The notes under the pieces: model-generated | The model's database searches: none | Told to the model about the DNA's origin: nothing | What the model saw: only the letters and a program-made list of their open reading frames with translations | Shown: one piece after another, positions 33,834 to 47,508 of the stretch | How positions within the stretch are numbered: the stretch's first letter is position 1 | Layout: every line of letters starts with the position of its first letter | NCBI RefSeq assembly: GCF_029395495.1 | Contig: NZ_CP113918.1 | Span: 2,356,001 to 2,420,000, forward strand | Direction of reading: 5' to 3' | Length of the DNA: 64,000 nucleotides | Source: Bifidobacterium sp. ESL0769 | GTDB taxonomy: Bacteria > Actinomycetota > Actinomycetes > Actinomycetales > Bifidobacteriaceae | Program-made: the position numbers and the translations under genes

Positions 33834-36764
33834 TTATTCTTCGCGTCGGCGAAAAACCATGAGGCCAAACCCAAGCGCGACCGAGAGCACCAACGCCGCT
33901 ATCATCGCGATTGCAACAGGCTCGATGCCAACGCCGGTCTTTGACAAGGTCTGCGAAGCGGGCTTGGAGCCCGTGTTCGGAGCTGGTGATGAAGACGGAT
34001 CGGACGACGAAGATGCGGAAGACGAAGGCGGCACAGACGACGAGAGCGACACCCACTTCGGACGCACGGTGAAATCAGAACCCGGCACCGCCGTCGGGTT
34101 CGCGGAACCTGCAAACTCGAAGTCATGCCAAGTCGTACCATCAACCGAGTATTCCCAACCGGAGAGCCGTTCATGGCTCGGCGCCACCAAACCGGAGACG
34201 GAAGCAGGCTGCGCAACCGTATCGCCTTCGTTCACCGTACCCGGCGCAGGCATACCCGGCCAGGTTCCTCCATTGTTGCTATACGTCAGCTGGTGCGTAC
34301 TCCTCGTCCAGACCGGGCGGACGGTGATGTCGGCATCAGGCATGTGCGTGCCGGAAGCCGAAGGGCCGAACTTGAACGGAGCCCACGCGCCGCCGGCTAC
34401 TTGATATTCCCAGCCCGAAAGATGGTAGTTCACAGGAACCGCCAAACCAGCCGTCGAAGGCGCGTTCGCGATAGTCAAATCATAGGCGACCGGAGCCGGT
34501 GTGGCGGGCCTGTCAGTCCATGCGACCCCATGCGGATCGTAAGTCACGTTATGCATATTTCGCGCCCAGATCACCTTCAAATTCAAGTCCCTGAGAACGG
34601 CCGGCGAGACGCCCGAGGTGAAGGGATAGGTGGTGCCGCTGGGAACCTCAATCCAATGGTCGACGTGCCAGCCCGCTTTCGTGGTCTGCGGCTCGTTGAA
34701 CGTATCGCCGTCGCTCAGATTTTCGGACGGCACGGCCGAACCACCGTCCGTGTCGAAAGTCACCTCGTGATCGGTCAACGTTCCTATGCCGCGGGTCACC
34801 TTGCCGCTGTAAGGAAAAGCCGCGGAGCCGAGGGAGACCGATTGCGCGGAGAACCCAGCCTTCACGGAAGACATCGACGCAGGGATGTTCGCCCAAGTCA
34901 CCGTGCCGCTCGGCGCATCGAACGTGTACCCGCTCGCCGGCACCACCGATCCCGCCGCGGTGTCGAGCGGAGCGTACGAACCGTCCGGCAATTTGCCGGT
35001 CTGCACTCTGACATGGTGGAGCGAATGCCCGTCGTCAAGCTGCCAGGTCTGGCCGCTGATATCAACGTTGCTGGTTTCCACATTCGACAGAAGATTTGTC
35101 ATACCAGACATCGGAGTCAGGTCGGCGACGTGGTTGTTGACCAGATGAAGCGAATTCATGGCGGTCAGCGGTCTTAAAGCCGAGATATCGGAAATGTTGT
35201 CGTAGTCGAGGTTCAGCGTCGTGAGCCTTACCAGGCCGCTGAGCGGGGTGAGATTGGAAATCTGCGCATTGCGGTCGGCCTTGAGAACATTCAGGTTGTT
35301 CAGCACACTGAGCTTGCCGAGCTGGGTATTGGTGAGGCCGTCATTTGTCAGATACAGCTCGGTCAGAGTCGGCAGGCTTTGTAACGGCGTGAGGTCCGTG
35401 AGCGTGTGTAGATTCTCCATATGCAGTACCCCAAGATGCGTGAAGGGAAGCAATTGGTTGAGGTTCGTGCACGTGTTGCCACCGCTATTGGTATACCATT
35501 CGTTGCCTGCATGCAGCTCATAAAGTTGGGTCATGCCCGACAGCAGCGCAAGAGAGGAAATATTGTTATCGCAGGCATACAACGTCTGCATCTCAGTCAA
35601 ACCCGATATCGGAGTAAGATCCGATATGCCGCAATCGGCAATATCCAGAACGGTCAAGTGAGTGAAAAGCGATAAGGTCGAGAAATTGGTCAGATGATCC
35701 GCTCGTATGCTCAGGAACAGGAGATTCGTCAACGGCGCGAGCGCTGAGATATCGGTGATTGGATTGAACTGAACATCCAAAAACTTCACCTGCGTAAGTA
35801 CGCTTAGCGGAGATAGATTGGTGATTCGGTTGCCGCCGAGATCCAGGTGAAGGAAATTCGGATTCGTCCGTAGCGTCGACAGCGCAGATACGTCGCTAAT
35901 CTGGTTGTCCATAATATAAAGTGCTTGAAGATTCAGAAAACTTGATGTGCTGAAAAACCCTACGCTCGAAATGCCATTGCCATCCATTCCGATGACCTGA
36001 AGAGAATGCCAGCTGCTGATCGGCGACAAATCACTGACTCTGTTGTAATCCATCAGGATTGTGCTCACGTTGGGAAGCGAGGAAAGAGAAGCGATGCTTG
36101 AGATGCTAGGCAAACCGGCAACGCTCCTGTCGTGAGCCAAGTCAATCCTAGTGAGATTGTTGAGATTGGCCAGCGGCGTCACATCAGTGATGCTCTGGTT
36201 GTGCAATACCAGAGAGTTGAGATTGGTGAGTACCTCCAAACCAGTCAGGTCGGTAATCCTGGGCGCGGTGCTGGTCATCTTATCCGAGCCAATGGCCTGC
36301 AAGGACGTGGTATTGGTGACCATGGCCGGAGTAAGCAAAGCACCTACCGTGGTCGAGTTCGCGGACGCGACGAGCTGGGCCAACACCGGGTCCGGGAAAC
36401 AGGCCGATATGGTGGTCGAGCCGACTATGCATCCGGAACGGGGCGCGATGCCGCCGCCCTGTGGAGCCGGTGCAGGAGTATGGCCAGCCTGAGCAGCACT
36501 CGGATTAATACGGGGCATGAGCGGCACTGGCTGAGCCGCTGCCTTGCCATGACTTGCGGCCGCTTGCGACTGACGCTGAGCTGTGGGGGCTTGCGACTGG
36601 TGCTCACCAGCAATAGCCATGCCGCCGCCAGACAGCAACAGTGCCGTCCCCGCCAGCATGGCAGCCAGCGAAACGAACAGTTTCTTTGCAGACACTTTTA
36701 TATGCGAAATGCGTTCAGAACGCTTCGGCTTATTCCCCAAACCCGACAAAGACTTTCCCCTCAA
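33834..36764 (-). CDS. Internalin-like LRR adhesin with LSKTG sorting signal
   Basis: 976 residues. The signal-peptide core (LFVSLAAMLAGTALLLSGGG) follows a basic N-terminus, cut near AIAG. A Cys cap (SGCIVGSTTISACFPD) precedes about 17 leucine-rich repeats (about 165-560) of 21-22 residues, e.g. LTNLNSLVLHNQSITDVTPL. Then an Ig-like inter-repeat region and three InlB-type repeats (about 660-890). The wall anchor is LSKTG (about 940), a helix (IAMIAALVLSVALGFGLMVF) and RRREE. Sorting signal LSKTG deviates from LPXTG at position 2. The first ATG has no good binding site; a start a few codons inside is possible. Shares architecture with the protein at 8193-10979 but differs in its anchor. Confidence 0.9.
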   Translation of the reverse strand: MRGKSLSGLGNKPKRSERISHIKVSAKKLFVSLAAMLAGTALLLSGGGMAIAGEHQSQAPTAQRQSQAAASHGKAAAQPVPLMPRINPSAAQAGHTPAPAPQGGGIAPRSGCIVGSTTISACFPDPVLAQLVASANSTTVGALLTPAMVTNTTSLQAIGSDKMTSTAPRITDLTGLEVLTNLNSLVLHNQSITDVTPLANLNNLTRIDLAHDRSVAGLPSISSIASLSSLPNVSTILMDYNRVSDLSPISSWHSLQVIGMDGNGISSVGFFSTSSFLNLQALYIMDNQISDVSALSTLRTNPNFLHLDLGGNRITNLSPLSVLTQVKFLDVQFNPITDISALAPLTNLLFLSIRADHLTNFSTLSLFTHLTVLDIADCGISDLTPISGLTEMQTLYACDNNISSLALLSGMTQLYELHAGNEWYTNSGGNTCTNLNQLLPFTHLGVLHMENLHTLTDLTPLQSLPTLTELYLTNDGLTNTQLGKLSVLNNLNVLKADRNAQISNLTPLSGLVRLTTLNLDYDNISDISALRPLTAMNSLHLVNNHVADLTPMSGMTNLLSNVETSNVDISGQTWQLDDGHSLHHVRVQTGKLPDGSYAPLDTAAGSVVPASGYTFDAPSGTVTWANIPASMSSVKAGFSAQSVSLGSAAFPYSGKVTRGIGTLTDHEVTFDTDGGSAVPSENLSDGDTFNEPQTTKAGWHVDHWIEVPSGTTYPFTSGVSPAVLRDLNLKVIWARNMHNVTYDPHGVAWTDRPATPAPVAYDLTIANAPSTAGLAVPVNYHLSGWEYQVAGGAWAPFKFGPSASGTHMPDADITVRPVWTRSTHQLTYSNNGGTWPGMPAPGTVNEGDTVAQPASVSGLVAPSHERLSGWEYSVDGTTWHDFEFAGSANPTAVPGSDFTVRPKWVSLSSSVPPSSSASSSSDPSSSPAPNTGSKPASQTLSKTGVGIEPVAIAMIAALVLSVALGFGLMVFRRREE

Positions 36765-41130: not shown

Positions 41131-43509
41131 ATGAAGTTCTGCAACAAATGTGGGCATAAGCTCGATGACGATCAGAAATTCTGCACCAAATGCGGGGCAC
41201 CTACGCCTTCTGCGAGTGCAGGCAGCGACGTGCACATACCCCCGCGCAACAATGCACCGCAACCCTCCGACACGGTCCACGTACCAATGCCGCAAAATGT
41301 GCCGCAACCACAGGGAAGTACAGCGAACTCAGGAACGCCGGCAGTGCCAGACACAAATGCTGCAATCCCGGCACCGCCAGAGGTAACAACAACAGCTCCG
41401 ACAGCAGCAACCACAGCCGTCAAAACAACTAGCAAAAAGCGTCTCATCATTATCATCGCGGCCATCGTAGCGGTCGCGCTGGTAGCGGTAGGGGCGGGCT
41501 TCGGCACATACAAAGCCCAACTTTGGGGTGGCAAAACCGTCCCAAACCCAGCCGATCTCGGAGTAGTCAAGTCCAGCAAAACCCACGAATTCACCGCCGC
41601 CGACGTCGAAGCTTCATTACATAAACGCGGTTTCAAGACCACCATCAAGCAGACCTTCTCGGCAAAGCCCAAAGGCAGTTTCATCGGATATAACAATATC
41701 CAGGCGAACAAGCGCTACAGCACCGGCAATCCGATCACCGTCTTCGCCTCAAACGGCCCCGGCGTACCGCAAGGGACCCACGGCCAGTCCGTACGCAAAA
41801 TCCAAAAATCCGTCGCCAGCATGGGTGTTCCCGTTCATTATTATAAAGTGATAGTCACCGATCAGAAGACCCCGGCCGACACCGTCATCGCCTCCTACCC
41901 TGCCGACGGCCAAGCCGTCTCCGACACCAAAACCGGCATCAACATCGGCGTCGCCGAGCAAGGCAACGGCGTGGGCTACGACATCGTGGGTCAGGACAAG
42001 AACCAGGCCCAACAGCAGTATGCGAGCGCCGGCTTCAATGTCACGTTGAAGCCCCGATTCTCATCAAAGGCACGAATCGGCAAAATCGTAGACTCCAACC
42101 CCAAGCCCGGCAGCGAGGCCAACGGCGGCAACCTCACCCTCTACTACGGCATCGACGCCAGCGGCTTCAAGGACGCTGTGAGCGGTAAAAACGCATACCC
42201 GAATGACTCATACGCTCCAGCCGACGGCCTCGTGGGATCAGCAGCACCCGTGACAGGAAAATACTGCACCACCGGCAGCGATTGCATTGACTTCACCGAC
42301 AACTCCAGCAGCCCCGGGGAAATGCCGACCACCGTAAGCTCCGAATTCCCCGCTCAGAAAAGCAAAGATTTCGGTAAAACGTTGCTATTCTGCGGGTCAA
42401 CACAACAGGCGTACTGCCCAACAGAAGATGGCCGGCTTCAATCCCTTTACACGAAGGGTTCCGGCGCGATTGAGCTCGCACCTTATCAGACGGCTATCGG
42501 ATACGAATGCGGCGGCGTTTGGCAAGAGGACGGCGGATGCGTCAACGGCAAATTCGTCGGATTGGACGAGCCAGGCGGTCTAGGCCAAATGTCTGGGGCC
42601 ACCTATGATATGGGCCCGCTATACATCTACTTCCCAGTCGGTTCCGATATGTCCAAAGTAACCGGCGCAAATTATTTCGATAAGGATGCGCTTGCACAAG
42701 CGCAGAAAAAGAAAGCCGTCGACACCTCACGCCCGTTCTTCATCAGACGCGATAAAAAGCTCTACGACAAGACCAGCATACCGATGACCTCGTTCAGCAC
42801 ACTCAATCCCTTCGCTCCGACGTTTGCCGCTCTCAGCAGTCAGAAGCTGGAACCATTCAAACCCGCACCCAGCGACGAGACTGCGTATTATCTAGTCGAG
42901 GGCCCTCAGCTTGACTGGGGCTCGTTGCCGGAGTATGTCATCGGCGGTGACAACAGCAGTAAAGACACAGCGAAAGGCAACGATAACGACAAAGCCGCTC
43001 AACCCACCACCAAAGACCCGACGCCTGACGACATTGTGGCAGCCACGACCAAGGGCGACTTTTCGCCGATTGCCGGCAACTATTGCAACGAAAGCAACGA
43101 ATGCATTGCATTAGATAAAACCGGGTTACTCACCGGCAACCAAAATGAAAAAATCCCCAACGGCAAGAGTCAGCTCATTCTTTCGACCCCGGAAAACACC
43201 AATAACACCTGGGGATCGTATGCGTACCCGGCCAAGCCCAATGCGCCCTTCGTGCACTTCCACGGGTCAGACAGCGAAGCGGTGGGTTCTACTCCGACCA
43301 ACATCATCTACGTCTTCAAAGGTTCGGACACGTCCGGGTGGTACACGGAAGGCGAATCGTCGATACCGAATCCGGACTTCAACTACAACGCGGCCGACGG
43401 TATCACCCCTGCGCCCACCGACAGGCCGTACCTGACCTTCCTCAACGGCCATAGCACCACGTTGATAACCCCACCTTCAAAGGAAGGCGTCTTCTATCTG
43501 CAACAATGA
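41131..43509 (+). CDS. Zinc-ribbon, membrane-anchored protein with PASTA-like repeats and paired cysteine domains, copy 1
   Basis: 792 residues. It opens with a zinc ribbon (C4-x2-C7, C18-x2-C21; MKFCNKCGHKL), a Thr/Pro-rich linker (25-100) and one membrane helix (about 104-126, IIIIAAIVAVALVAVGAGF), placing the ribbon in the cytoplasm. Outside come three PASTA-like repeats (about 137-370), e.g. VGQDKNQAQQQYASAGFNVT. Two Cys-motif domains follow: the first from GKYCTTGSDCIDF (about 376) to YYLVEGPQLDW, the second from GNYCNESNECIALDKTG (about 650) to the end GVFYLQQ. The second looks like a shortened repeat of the first. Copy 2 follows after 110 bases with the same architecture. Role inferred: wall-facing sensor with cytoplasmic zinc-ribbon contact; no known family name assigned. 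Confidence 0.75.
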   Translation: MKFCNKCGHKLDDDQKFCTKCGAPTPSASAGSDVHIPPRNNAPQPSDTVHVPMPQNVPQPQGSTANSGTPAVPDTNAAIPAPPEVTTTAPTAATTAVKTTSKKRLIIIIAAIVAVALVAVGAGFGTYKAQLWGGKTVPNPADLGVVKSSKTHEFTAADVEASLHKRGFKTTIKQTFSAKPKGSFIGYNNIQANKRYSTGNPITVFASNGPGVPQGTHGQSVRKIQKSVASMGVPVHYYKVIVTDQKTPADTVIASYPADGQAVSDTKTGINIGVAEQGNGVGYDIVGQDKNQAQQQYASAGFNVTLKPRFSSKARIGKIVDSNPKPGSEANGGNLTLYYGIDASGFKDAVSGKNAYPNDSYAPADGLVGSAAPVTGKYCTTGSDCIDFTDNSSSPGEMPTTVSSEFPAQKSKDFGKTLLFCGSTQQAYCPTEDGRLQSLYTKGSGAIELAPYQTAIGYECGGVWQEDGGCVNGKFVGLDEPGGLGQMSGATYDMGPLYIYFPVGSDMSKVTGANYFDKDALAQAQKKKAVDTSRPFFIRRDKKLYDKTSIPMTSFSTLNPFAPTFAALSSQKLEPFKPAPSDETAYYLVEGPQLDWGSLPEYVIGGDNSSKDTAKGNDNDKAAQPTTKDPTPDDIVAATTKGDFSPIAGNYCNESNECIALDKTGLLTGNQNEKIPNGKSQLILSTPENTNNTWGSYAYPAKPNAPFVHFHGSDSEAVGSTPTNIIYVFKGSDTSGWYTEGESSIPNPDFNYNAADGITPAPTDRPYLTFLNGHSTTLITPPSKEGVFYLQQ

Positions 43510-43619
43510 CGACCCCAGCCGTGCCTGCGAATCTCAACCGATTCATCGTTGATCCGCTTGGGACGCACAAGGCACGGCTTCATATCACCAGACAGGAATT
43601 GGCCTAACGAGGAGCGAAC

Positions 43620-45992
43620 ATGAAATTCTGCAACAGCTGCGGGCACCGCATGGACGACGACGATGTGTTCTGCCCCGAGTGCGGGAGCCCCACCCAACCG
43701 GCACCTTTGCAACCGGCACCTCCGCAACCCGCACAAGGTTCAACTTCCTCCGTACCCCTACCTAACGGGCAAGGCGAATCACCATTCAATGCGTCAGCCG
43801 CCACAACCGCTAACACTGCCGTGGCGACCGCAGCACAAGTCCACGCTAAGAAAACCTTGATTATCATCATCGCCTCCATCGTCGCCGTTGCGCTGGTCGC
43901 CACAGGAATCGGCTTCGGCACTTACAAAGCCCAGCTCTGGGGCGGTAAAACCGTGCCGAACCCGGCCGACCTTGGCATCGCCAAGTCAAACAAGACCCAC
44001 GAATTCACCGCCGCCGACGTCGAGGCATCACTGCACAAACGCGGCTTCAAAACCATCACCAAACAAACGTTCTCTGCCAAACCGCAAGGCAGCTTCCTCA
44101 ACTACCGTGGCATCGACCCCGGCAAACGCTACGGAACGAACAACAATCCGGTGACCATCATCGCCTCGCTCGGCCCCGGCATACCCAAAGGCACCAGCGG
44201 CCAGCCCGCACAAAACGTCACCGCTAGCCTAGAATCAATGGGCGTCCCCGTCCATTATCGCAAAGTGATAGTCTCCGACAAAGGCCCCAAAGAGGGCACC
44301 GTCGTCGCCTCCTACCCCACCGATGGCCAAGCCGTCACCGACACCAATGCCGGCATCAACGTCGGCGTCGCCGAACACGGCGAGGACGGTATCGGCTATG
44401 ACATCGTCGGTCTTGAGAAAAATCAAGCCCAGCAACAATACGCCGGTAAGGGCTTCAATGTCATCATGATGCCGCGATTCTCCAGCAAGAAAATGCTCGG
44501 CAAAATCGTGGACTCCGATCCAAAGCCAGGCACTCCAGCAAACGGCGGCAACCTCGTGCTGTTCTACGGCATCGACGCCAGCGGCATGGACGATGCCGCG
44601 ATTGACCGTGCGGATTACACCTCATCAGGAGTCCCGCCCACACTGTTCGCTACCAACGCACCCGTCGGTGGAAAATATTGCACGAACTCAGGAAAATGCA
44701 TTACTTTCAACGAAAAAGTCGACGTATCGGGAGGCCGCGGATACACCACCGTGACCAGCTCAGAAATCTCAGACCAGTACAGCTTCCTCGCTTTTTGCCA
44801 TAGCGGCGGAGACCCGGGCTGCCCGACCGGCTCCCAATACGGCGAGCGCGGCGAACTCTATTACAAGCATCTTGGCGCATTCGAGCTGATGGATTCGACG
44901 GCGATGAATGCCATCACCTGCGGCACAGATTCCGTGGGGCGCTCGGCTGGAGACGAAAGATGCGTCAACGGCCAGGTCGTCCAGCTCGACGGTTCGGGCG
45001 ACACCTCAATGAGCGGCGCTACTTACAACATGGGCCCGTTATACGCCTATTTCCCGGTCAATGCGAAAATCAAAAACGTGGTCGATTCCGGCTATTTCGA
45101 CAAAGATTACGTGGCCGAAGCCGGCAAACAGAAGCCCGTGTACACCTCACGCCCATTCCTAATCAGCCGCGACAAGAGCCTGTACAAGACGACAAGCGTC
45201 AACGTGCCGGATCTCAAGACTCCCAACCCCTTCATCCCCGAATCGCTGAAGAAAGACAACGGAACGTTGGTCCCGATGAAACCGGCACCCAGCGACCAAA
45301 CCGCTTATTACCTGATCGAAGACCCGCTGGATTGGAACAGTTTGCCGGAATTCACCATCGAGAAGAATGGCGGAAATAGCGGCAACAAGAGCGACAAGTC
45401 GGATGCAGGGAACTCGTCAAAAGCGGACGCGCAACCTCAGGTCACCCCGCAAAACGCGACGCCCGACCAGATCACCGCAGCCGCCGAAAAGGGCGATGAC
45501 TCATTGATCGCCGGCAAATACTGCACCAACGACGGCCACTGCCTCGACCTGAGCAAAACAGGCCAGCTTACCGGAGGGGCCCAAGAATCGATGCTGGGAA
45601 TTGATTCGACGCAGCTGACCCTTTCCACGGCATCCGAGGGTGCGACCAGCGCCCGTAACGTCAAGCCGGACTCGCAGTTCCTTGAATTCCGGGGCTCGGT
45701 CAATGACTACCTCTGCAAGAACGGAACCTCGGGGCAAGCATGTAAAAATAGCTACCATACCACCCCTGAGGTCGACCGGTGGCCGGCTCATATCCTCTAT
45801 GTTTTCAAAGGATCCGACACATCGAGCTGGTACGCGCCTAACGCCACGCCACCCGTTCAAGGATTCACGCCCAATTACTCAGACAGATACGACAGAACGC
45901 CGGCCAAGACCGACAGAGCGTACATCTATCCGGTAGGCTGGCACATGACGGTTTCCCCGTTCGACGACGGCGCATACTACTTCCAAGGCTAA
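43620..45992 (+). CDS. Zinc-ribbon, membrane-anchored protein with PASTA-like repeats and paired cysteine domains, copy 2
   Basis: 790 residues, a close paralogue of the preceding protein. Zinc ribbon C4/C7 and C18/C21 (MKFCNSCGHRM), linker, helix at about 79-102 (IIIIASIVAVALVATGIGF), then KAQLWGGKTVPNPADLG, identical to copy 1. Three PASTA-like repeats follow, then two Cys domains starting GGKYCTNSGKCITF (about 352) and GKYCTNDGHCLDLSKTG (about 632), ending GAYYFQG. The extracellular domains differ most between copies (an extra Cys-containing insert NDYLCKNGTSGQAC in this one). A GGAGCGAAC site stands before ATG. The pair probably arose by tandem duplication followed by divergence of the exposed half. 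Confidence 0.75.
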   Translation: MKFCNSCGHRMDDDDVFCPECGSPTQPAPLQPAPPQPAQGSTSSVPLPNGQGESPFNASAATTANTAVATAAQVHAKKTLIIIIASIVAVALVATGIGFGTYKAQLWGGKTVPNPADLGIAKSNKTHEFTAADVEASLHKRGFKTITKQTFSAKPQGSFLNYRGIDPGKRYGTNNNPVTIIASLGPGIPKGTSGQPAQNVTASLESMGVPVHYRKVIVSDKGPKEGTVVASYPTDGQAVTDTNAGINVGVAEHGEDGIGYDIVGLEKNQAQQQYAGKGFNVIMMPRFSSKKMLGKIVDSDPKPGTPANGGNLVLFYGIDASGMDDAAIDRADYTSSGVPPTLFATNAPVGGKYCTNSGKCITFNEKVDVSGGRGYTTVTSSEISDQYSFLAFCHSGGDPGCPTGSQYGERGELYYKHLGAFELMDSTAMNAITCGTDSVGRSAGDERCVNGQVVQLDGSGDTSMSGATYNMGPLYAYFPVNAKIKNVVDSGYFDKDYVAEAGKQKPVYTSRPFLISRDKSLYKTTSVNVPDLKTPNPFIPESLKKDNGTLVPMKPAPSDQTAYYLIEDPLDWNSLPEFTIEKNGGNSGNKSDKSDAGNSSKADAQPQVTPQNATPDQITAAAEKGDDSLIAGKYCTNDGHCLDLSKTGQLTGGAQESMLGIDSTQLTLSTASEGATSARNVKPDSQFLEFRGSVNDYLCKNGTSGQACKNSYHTTPEVDRWPAHILYVFKGSDTSSWYAPNATPPVQGFTPNYSDRYDRTPAKTDRAYIYPVGWHMTVSPFDDGAYYFQG

Positions 45993-46338: not shown

Positions 46339-47508
46339 ATGATACCACGGACAATCAGCGACAAAATCCGCGACATGGCCACCAAATTCCCAATTATCTC
46401 GCTGACCGGAACGAGGCAAAGCGGAAAGACAACATTGCTACGCGAGCTATTCCCTGATTTCCGTTACGTCTCCATGGAGGACCCGGACGTCAACCGTCTG
46501 GCCAAGCAAGACATGCGCGGGTTCCTAGACGTTTACGACGACCACGTCATTTTCGACGAAGCCCAGCGCACCCCGGAACTGTTCTCATACCTGCAAGGCA
46601 TCGTAGACGACAGACGGCAACGCCCCGGGCAATTCATTCTTTCCGGATCGCAGAATTTCCTCCTGCTCAACAGCATCTCGCAATCATTGGCCGGCCGCGT
46701 CGCGGTGCTTTACCTGCTCCCTCTCTCCTACGCCGAACTCGCTGCCGCCGGGGACACCCCCCAAACCATGGACGCATGGACGTGGCAAGGCGGATACCCG
46801 CGCCTTTACGACAAGAACATCGAACCGCCCGACTACTTCCCCAGCTATATCGACACCTACGTCGAACGCGACGTGCGCGACGAACTCGGAGTACGCAAAC
46901 TCTCCGCGTTCCGCAGGTTCCTGACCCAGTGCGCTTCACGAGCCGGTGAGATGCTGAGCGTCAACTCGCTTGCCACGGACTCCGGAATCGACTACAAAAC
47001 GACGCAGGATTGGCTTTCGATTCTGGAATCGAGCTTCATCGCCTTCCGTCTGTATCCGTATTATAAAAATTACGGCAAGCGGCTCGTCAAGACGCCTAAA
47101 CTCTACTTCTACGACAGCGGGCTGGCCGCTTATCTGCTCAATATCGACAGCCCTGGTGCATTGCTGCTGAGCCAACGGCGGGGCGCCTTGTTCGAAAATG
47201 CGGTGGTCAGCGAAATCCTCAAACGCTACTACGCAATCGGCCGCACGCCGATGCTCTATTATTGGCGGGACTATTCGCGCACCGAAATCGACCTCATCAC
47301 CGAAAAGGGCGGGGAGATCGAATACGCCATAGAAATCAAAGCCTCCGCCACTTATGATTCACACGCATTCGCCAATATCGCCAAGCTCGCAGACGACCTC
47401 GGCGTCGACAGGGACCACCGCATCGTGGTCTACGGCGGCGACCAATCATTCAACACCAAATGGGGCCGGCTGCTCTCCCTGCACGACCTGCAGCAGATCA
47501 TCGACTAA
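46339..47508 (+). CDS. AAA_14/DUF4143-family ATPase
   Basis: 389 residues. Walker A GTRQSGKTTLL (about 23-33), Walker B HVIFDEAQRTPELF (about 72-85), sensor-type SGSQNFLL (about 110). Then the DUF4143 half with YPRLYDK and YIDTYVERDVRDELG (about 170-190), RTEIDLI and EYAIEIKASAT (a PD-(D/E)XK-like D...E-x-K pattern, about 313-335), and a short C-terminus. This class is widespread and often present in many copies per genome; function is unclear, with a transfer- or defence-related role suggested by distribution. A GAGG site precedes the ATG. It is bracketed by different repeat arrays (46150-46310 and 47507-47668). Confidence 0.88.
   Translation: MIPRTISDKIRDMATKFPIISLTGTRQSGKTTLLRELFPDFRYVSMEDPDVNRLAKQDMRGFLDVYDDHVIFDEAQRTPELFSYLQGIVDDRRQRPGQFILSGSQNFLLLNSISQSLAGRVAVLYLLPLSYAELAAAGDTPQTMDAWTWQGGYPRLYDKNIEPPDYFPSYIDTYVERDVRDELGVRKLSAFRRFLTQCASRAGEMLSVNSLATDSGIDYKTTQDWLSILESSFIAFRLYPYYKNYGKRLVKTPKLYFYDSGLAAYLLNIDSPGALLLSQRRGALFENAVVSEILKRYYAIGRTPMLYYWRDYSRTEIDLITEKGGEIEYAIEIKASATYDSHAFANIAKLADDLGVDRDHRIVVYGGDQSFNTKWGRLLSLHDLQQIID

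What the first reader, a model, noticed from the sequence alone, without database searches (positions are those of the whole stretch)
41131..45992. Twin zinc-ribbon / PASTA-like / cysteine-domain membrane proteins
Two adjacent paralogues combine a cytoplasmic zinc ribbon, one helix, three PASTA-like repeats and two copies of a cysteine-motif domain (YC-x6-C near 376 and 650 in copy 1, 352 and 632 in copy 2). The second domain looks like a shortened repeat of the first: both start G(K/N)YC and end in a YY/FY aromatic motif. I know no named family with this order. They lie 2 kb upstream of the operon for PknB, whose sensor also uses PASTA domains, so they could be non-kinase wall sensors or substrates. 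The exposed halves differ most between copies.
Basis: partly seen in the sequence, partly recalled or inferred. Interest (0 to 1): 0.7.

Follow-up and report, generated by a model that had tools for sequence, protein, structure and literature searches.

The report
PASTA-stalk proteins with swappable tips
Two neighbouring bifidobacterial genes encode membrane proteins with a wall-binding-type stalk and two unusual outer domains; the outer domains appear to be traded between species like interchangeable tips, which suggests they recognise something outside the cell and are under pressure to vary.

Summary
Both proteins have a zinc ribbon, a Pro/Ala/Thr-rich linker, one helix, three PASTA units (Pfam plus predicted fold) and two copies of one cysteine domain; these two are homologous (profile-profile 98.7%, E 2.4e-16). 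No Pfam or NCBIfam model reaches its cut-off on them, but they are distant kin of DUF6287. Predicted folds weakly resemble avidin/lipocalin-type barrels. Domain 1 was found in 71 of 189 Bifidobacteriaceae genomes and in 1 of 396 phylum genomes, the window's own.

The PknB link is local: in 9 of 34 family-bearing genomes the genes lie within 20 kb of pknB, while pknB occurs in 61 of 61.

New: the tips behave as exchangeable cassettes. Against its closest relative (FhaA 100%, RodA 96%), copy 1 is 94% identical in PASTA but 60% in domain 1 and 51% in domain 2. Other species pairs show one divergent tip between matching flanks, or tips closer than the stalk. Tip identities fall into two groups, PASTA's do not, and some segment trees conflict. 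Best reading: wall-docked surface recognition proteins diversified by domain exchange. Ligand and any inward signalling are unknown.

The parts
41131..43509 (+). copy 1 (q1), 792-aa zinc ribbon / TM / 3 PASTA / 2 cysteine-domain protein
41131..41208 (+). zinc ribbon of copy 1 (res 1-26)
   Evidence: PF13240 34.4 bits
41209..41430 (+). Pro/Ala/Thr-rich cytoplasmic linker of copy 1
   Evidence: basic residues just before the helix (N-in orientation inferred)
41431..41508 (+). transmembrane helix of copy 1 (res 101-126)
   Evidence: read from the sequence; no TM predictor was run
41530..42156 (+). three PASTA units of copy 1 (res 134-208, 212-276, 278-342)
42238..42951 (+). domain 1 (tip cassette 1) of copy 1, res 370-607, GKYC-x5-C ... 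AYYLV ... DW
   Evidence: cassette behaviour
43030..43506 (+). domain 2 (tip cassette 2) of copy 1, res 634-792, shortened homologue of domain 1, DUF6287-related
43620..45992 (+). copy 2 (q2), 790-aa paralogue with the same order
43620..43697 (+). zinc ribbon of copy 2
   Evidence: PF13240 29.0 bits
43854..43916 (+). transmembrane helix of copy 2 (about res 79-99)
   Evidence: read from the sequence
43938..44582 (+). three PASTA units of copy 2
   Evidence: by alignment to copy 1, (copy 2 was not folded)
44652..45368 (+). domain 1 of copy 2
45489..45989 (+). domain 2 of copy 2 (type shared with the copy-1 locus of genome G151, 78%)

Best explanation
These are single-pass cell-envelope recognition proteins. 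Shown by sequence or predicted structure: a zinc ribbon, a low-complexity linker, one helix, a three-PASTA stalk and one or two cysteine-rich, beta-rich tip domains distantly related to DUF6287. Shown by comparison: the tips are exchanged between species, and in one case between paralogous loci, as separate cassettes, on a stalk that for the window and its closest relative follows the flanking genes. Inferred: the cysteines form disulfides; the PASTA stalk holds the protein at peptidoglycan or its precursors; the tips bind a variable partner outside (phage, bacteriocin, competitor or host/diet molecule); selection for variety at that contact drives the exchange. The zinc ribbon probably docks a cytoplasmic partner, so the protein may also report binding inward; nothing here tests that.
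For: Architecture. Tip homology. Paired cysteines: even number outside the membrane in 55 of 60 sequences (window pair included); 379/385 both present in 60 of 60; 460/470 both in 47, one in 6, none in 7; 421/429 both in 31, one in 4, none in 25. Closest relative G048: FhaA 100%, PP2C 95%, RodA 96%, copy-1 PASTA 94%, but domain 1 60% and domain 2 51%. pS of that pair is 0.33 in PASTA (pknB linker+PASTA 0.29) and 0.66-0.69 in the tips, with the step at the PASTA3/domain-1 border. G048 vs G055: domain 1 pS 0.21, below PASTA 0.40 and pknB kinase 0.34. G050 vs G048 copy 1: divergent domain 1 (pS 0.77, pN 0.23) between similar PASTA and domain 2 (pS 0.38, 0.40). Copy-2 domain 2 of the window is 78% identical to domain 2 of G151's copy-1 locus, against 47-49% to five copy-2 homologues. 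Identities fall into two groups for the tips (copy-1 domain 2: 36-52 and 81-92) and not for PASTA. AU tests: copy-1 PASTA and domain 1 reject each other's best topology (PASTA rejects at p=0.016); in copy 2, domain 2 rejects domain 1's only accepted topology (p=0.015). Wider: of 28 pairs with PASTA 80% or more, 11 have domain 1 at least 20 points lower (3 of the 11 outside the window clade) and 6 have domain 1 above PASTA. The second tip is of three kinds in 60 sequences: 15 domain-1-like, 26 another domain, 19 absent.
Confidence: 0.5

Rival explanations
1. Non-kinase wall sensors or substrates of the PknB pathway: PASTA and tips sense muropeptides and the linker is phosphorylated and read by FhaA.
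For: Close to fhaA-pknB in the window clade; 9 of 34 genomes within 20 kb. TM plus PASTA1-3 align in line with PknB's (E 5e-5 and 3e-4), and unit 1 matches PknB unit 1 best. PASTA fold matches MtPknB.
Against: No nearness shown in 25 of 34 genomes (4 over 100 kb away, 21 on another contig, distance unknown). Unit 2 prefers PknB unit 3, so descent from PknB is not clean. No Thr motif conserved in the linker. Does not explain tip exchange.
Confidence: 0.2
2. The tips simply evolve fast under weak constraint; no recombination, only rate differences along the gene.
For: In five of six pairs at least one tip has higher pN than PASTA; the linker is fastest in five of six. Some segment trees are compatible.
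Against: Synonymous divergence also jumps at the domain border; some pairs have tips closer than the stalk (G048/G055 domain 1, G050/G055 and G050/G048 copy-2 domain 2); identities form two groups; topologies conflict for copy-1 PASTA vs domain 1 and copy-2 domain 1 vs domain 2; a tip type occurs at both loci.
Confidence: 0.12
3. A cell-wall homeostasis or antibiotic-tolerance protein that works like TcaA: a zinc-ribbon membrane protein modulating wall synthesis.
For: Zinc ribbon / TM / ectodomain plan; in many bifidobacterial loci the gene lies in a stretch with a class A PBP gene (14 of 43 loci hold that neighbour cluster, one representative named by Pfam).
Against: NCBIfam TcaA model 10.7 bits against a cut-off of 550 in copy 1, not listed for copy 2; patchy presence (71 of 189) argues against a core wall role.
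Confidence: 0.1

Closest known systems
PASTA kinases (PknB/PrkC ectodomains)
   Same: TM helix followed by in-line PASTA units; fold match to MtPknB PASTA (Foldseek E 2.9e-9)
   Different: no kinase domain; zinc ribbon instead; two extra tip domains
DUF6287 (PF19804) proteins
   Same: domain 2 begins with the same kind of GDFSxIAGxY/W stretch; the middle domain of a G034 protein is over the PF19804 cut-off (26.8 vs 26.3 bits) and matches copy-1 domain 2 (BLAST E 1.3e-8; its pair-profile vs domain 2 99.2%, vs domain 1 95.4%); one such protein (L115) has a zinc ribbon and a TM by eye
   Different: window proteins are far below the cut-off (11.7 bits); profile comparison with the GTW-type DUF6287 domains is weak (domain 2 12%, with the bridging domains 25%; domain 1 2.5%); the bridging domain's counterpart in G025 is itself below the cut-off (20.5 bits); PASTA was not searched for in those proteins
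TcaA of Staphylococcus aureus
   Same: zinc-ribbon protein; PMC10611510 calls it a 454-residue zinc ribbon domain protein (one passage seen); membrane topology recalled
   Different: fails the TcaA model; no PASTA in TcaA (recalled)
Avidin/streptavidin and lipocalin-type barrels
Mosaic surface antigens and receptors of other bacteria (recalled)
   Same: variable exposed modules exchanged on a conserved stem
   Different: PASTA stem, zinc ribbon inside and this domain are not part of any such system I can name

Membership tests
PASTA domain proteins | PF03793 over curated cut-off and PASTA fold | tested here: met
   37.8 and 36.1 bits vs 23.2; fold of copy 1
PASTA Ser/Thr kinases (PknB) | protein kinase domain | tested here: not met
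   no Pkinase among the 12 families listed at E<=10 for either protein; NF033483 67.2 and 44.5 bits vs cut-off 450
Zinc-ribbon membrane proteins | N-terminal CxxC...CxxC zinc ribbon | tested here: met
   PF13240 34.4 and 29.0 bits vs 25
TcaA | NF053815 over cut-off | tested here: not met
   10.7 bits vs 550 in copy 1, not listed for copy 2
DUF6287 | PF19804 over cut-off 26.3 bits | tested here: not met
   own genome: best place in this protein 11.7 bits; 2 of 15 domain-2 sequences match at E<=1, best E 0.012
DUF6287 superfamily (distant kinship only) | sequence link through an intermediate | tested here: met
   window domain 2 to G034 middle domain E 1.3e-8; that domain 26.8 bits, just over the cut-off, its G025 counterpart 20.5, below. 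14 of 28 sub-cut-off PF19804 places at E<=0.5 in 61 genomes fall in this family (my count)
Avidin/lipocalin-type barrels | shared barrel fold | tested here: inconclusive
Cassette-variable surface proteins | exchange of exposed modules on a conserved stem | tested here: met
   AU conflicts for copy-1 PASTA vs domain 1 and copy-2 domain 1 vs domain 2, other segment pairs compatible
Cassette-variable surface proteins | selection by phage, immunity or competitors | not testable with these tools
   needs experiments or strain-level sampling; dN/dS below 1
PknB pathway component | general genomic link or phosphorylation | tested here: inconclusive
   9 of 34 genomes within 20 kb of pknB; phosphorylation not testable; no conserved Thr motif

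The most novel reading that the evidence does not exclude
A bifidobacterial recognition system in which a PASTA stalk presents interchangeable tip receptors at the growing wall, and a cytoplasmic zinc ribbon passes the signal inside. Species draw from a shared pool of tip modules, traded between species and between paralogous loci, to vary what they bind, as in phage-receptor escape or strain (self/non-self) recognition.
Probability: 0.2. Interest if true: 0.78.

Novelty: new variant of a known kind. Interest (0 to 1): 0.6.

Why it matters
Bifidobacteria are major gut commensals, and little is known of what their phages, competitors and hosts recognise at their surface (recalled, not searched). 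A family with a conserved wall-docking-type stem and tips traded between species marks a place where outside pressure may act, and makes that testable by swapping tips in laboratory strains. It also gives DUF6287-type domains, known here only as a 34-position uncharacterised Pfam model, a structural and evolutionary frame, and shows PASTA used outside kinases and penicillin-binding proteins.

Tried and rejected
Descent of the PASTA tract from PknB: unit 1 prefers PknB unit 1 and unit 3 prefers unit 3, but unit 2 prefers unit 3 over 2, so not concluded. Recent gene conversion between the two window copies: no 30-codon stretch above 84% nucleotide identity. A relative in viral contigs: 26 pattern stretches, none a relative. 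DUF6287 proteins on plasmids, one query: no match. A wider spread of domain 1: 1 of 396 phylum genomes, the window's own. Profile link of the alternative tip domain (D2b) to domain 1 or 2: not supported (0.5% and 9%). Positive selection: dN/dS below 1 in all segments of six pairs. For domain 1 the Foldseek list has nothing at E 0.001 or better; this does not show the fold to be new. A paper search for the Lip3 DL-peptidase row found nothing on it.

Literature: ten searches. No listed paper describes this family, judged from titles and abstract openings of the rows shown, which are a part of the hits in most of these searches; 'Bifidobacterium + PASTA domain + zinc ribbon' gave 0 papers. Only open-licence PMC papers are held. 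Passages were read in four papers, no whole text.

Full report
WHAT IS THERE. Two adjacent same-strand genes, 41131-43509 and 43620-45992, 110 nt apart without a terminator-like site on their strand, encode 792- and 790-residue proteins that are 55% identical; the own genome holds no third copy. Both carry a Pfam zinc ribbon and PASTA over the curated cut-offs. No Pfam or NCBIfam model reaches its cut-off on the C-terminal domains, searched whole or in pieces. The cysteine motif is YC-x5-C rather than x6.

TIP DOMAINS. Domain 1 and domain 2 are homologous (hhalign 98.7%, E 2.4e-16, 154 columns; controls 0.5% and 9%); a domain-1 profile finds domain 2 of both window proteins. Extracellular cysteines are even in number in 55 of 60 sequences (window pair included). 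The pair 379/385 is present in 60 of 60; 460/470 together in 47, singly in 6; 421/429 together in 31, singly in 4. Disulfides are likely but not shown. In these 60 the second tip is domain-1-like in 15, another domain in 26 and absent in 19 (one row moved). A search of plasmids with that other domain found one record, a Streptococcus equinus plasmid protein, at E 8e-21.

KINSHIP. PF19804 (DUF6287) is over its cut-off in 7 of 61 genus genomes, in other proteins. Of the 28 places below the cut-off that the call lists (E<=0.5), I count 14 in this family. One protein (L114) has three such domains; its middle one is just over the cut-off (26.8 vs 26.3; the counterpart in G025 has 20.5, below) and matches copy-1 domain 2 (E 1.3e-8; also E 1.6e-5). 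Profile comparison with the GTW-type DUF6287 domains is weak (domain 2 12%, with the bridging domains 25%, domain 1 2.5%). Distant kinship, not membership. One passage each was seen in the two papers found for DUF6287: PMC12282319 lists a DUF6287 gene in one operon with an LD-carboxypeptidase gene, a faint hint of a wall role; PMC10376253 lists one only in a table of sequence changes.

SPREAD AND NEIGHBOURS. Domain 1: 71 of 189 Bifidobacteriaceae genomes, 4 of 16 genera, 36 of the 71 with more than one hit (my count; fragments and domain-2 hits included); four tandem copies in G029 and in L058. Across the phylum 1 of 396, the window's own; no relative in viral contigs. Named loci: 43, titled Bifidobacterium, Gardnerella or Bifidobacteriaceae. 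Neighbours differ: fhaA-pknB in the window clade, pknB about 4 kb away in two Gardnerella loci; in many others a stretch with DUF5701 (10 of 43 loci), a metallophosphoesterase (17 by BLAST), leuA (8) and a class A penicillin-binding protein (14), each named by Pfam from one representative. pknB is in 61 of 61 genus genomes. Of 34 of these with a domain-1 hit, 9 have the genes within 20 kb of pknB, 4 over 100 kb away and 21 on another contig (my count).

CASSETTES. A tree puts the copies in two starred sets, six rows with copy 1 and seven with copy 2, so the duplication predates these species. Flanking genes were located in fetched 20-kb regions. Copy 1 and its orthologue in the closest relative G048 (FhaA 100%, PP2C 95%, RodA 96%) are 94% identical in PASTA, 60% in domain 1 and 51% in domain 2; pS steps from 0.33 to 0.66-0.69 at the PASTA3/domain-1 border. 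G048 and G055 have domain 1 at pS 0.21 while PASTA is at 0.40 and the pknB kinase at 0.34. G050 and G048 have a divergent domain 1 (65%) between similar PASTA (90%) and domain 2 (92%). In copy 2, G050 and G055 have domain 2 at 97% (pS 0.16) while PASTA is at 78% (pS 0.45) and domain 1 at 66%. Domain 2 of the window's copy 2 is 78% identical to domain 2 of G151's copy-1 locus but 47-49% to the five copy-2 domains compared, so a tip type occurs at both loci; that link is old (pS 0.56). Identities among six copy-1 rows: PASTA 79-94, domain 1 56-65 and 79-93 (2 of 15 pairs in the upper group), domain 2 36-52 and 81-92 (6 of 15); copy 2: PASTA 71-90, domain 1 55-68 and 85-88, domain 2 47-57 and 82-97.

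TESTS AND LIMITS. Five-taxon AU tests, not corrected for multiple testing. Copy 1: PASTA's best topology is rejected by domain 1 (p below 1e-50, not to be read literally) and domain 1's only accepted one by PASTA (p 0.016); domain 2 allows 13 of 15 and conflicts with little. Copy 2: PASTA and domain 1 agree; domain 1's only accepted topology is rejected by domain 2 (p 0.015); but one topology fits both PASTA and domain 2. In 28 pairs with PASTA at 80% or more among 76 aligned sequences, 11 have domain 1 at least 20 points lower, 3 of them outside the window clade (e.g. L067/L060: PASTA 80, domain 1 46, domain 2 77), and 6 have it higher than PASTA; pairs share sequences and are not independent. 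dN/dS never exceeds 1. Genomes are one per species, so exchange within species is unseen.

INTERPRETATION. Conserved inside and stalk, exchanged outside: the pattern expected of a recognition protein under pressure to vary. PASTA docking at peptidoglycan follows from known PASTA biology (title and abstract opening of PMC3145798, seen: the PknB ectodomain binds specific muropeptides). Ligand, signalling and selection agent are inferred, not shown.

Noticed in passing
L114 3201-6146; L115 2777-4744; L116 2475-5018: Large bifidobacterial proteins with several DUF6287-type domains, a TM and in L115 a zinc ribbon (by eye); in L116 they lie beside a clpX-like gene (recalled from its sequence). The Pfam model seems to cover only the first strands of a longer domain.
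   Followed up: partly
L155 (CP020439.2): A large hypothetical Streptococcus equinus plasmid protein contains the alternative second-tip domain (34% identity, E 8e-21), so this domain crosses phyla.
   Followed up: no
L060, L067, L071, L072, L073, L077: Two copies of the family face each other around a calcineurin-like phosphoesterase gene.
   Followed up: partly
L070 9572-11476, L045, G029 copy 1, G022: Some copies are split or carry an in-frame stop in the search output, consistent with birth and death of copies.
   Followed up: no
window 33834-36764 (-): Leucine-rich-repeat protein with a Listeria-Bacteroides repeat, a likely surface protein, upstream of the pair on the other strand.
   Followed up: no
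window 46339-47508: AAA_14/DUF4143 ATPase gene sits between the pair and fhaA on the same strand.
   Followed up: no
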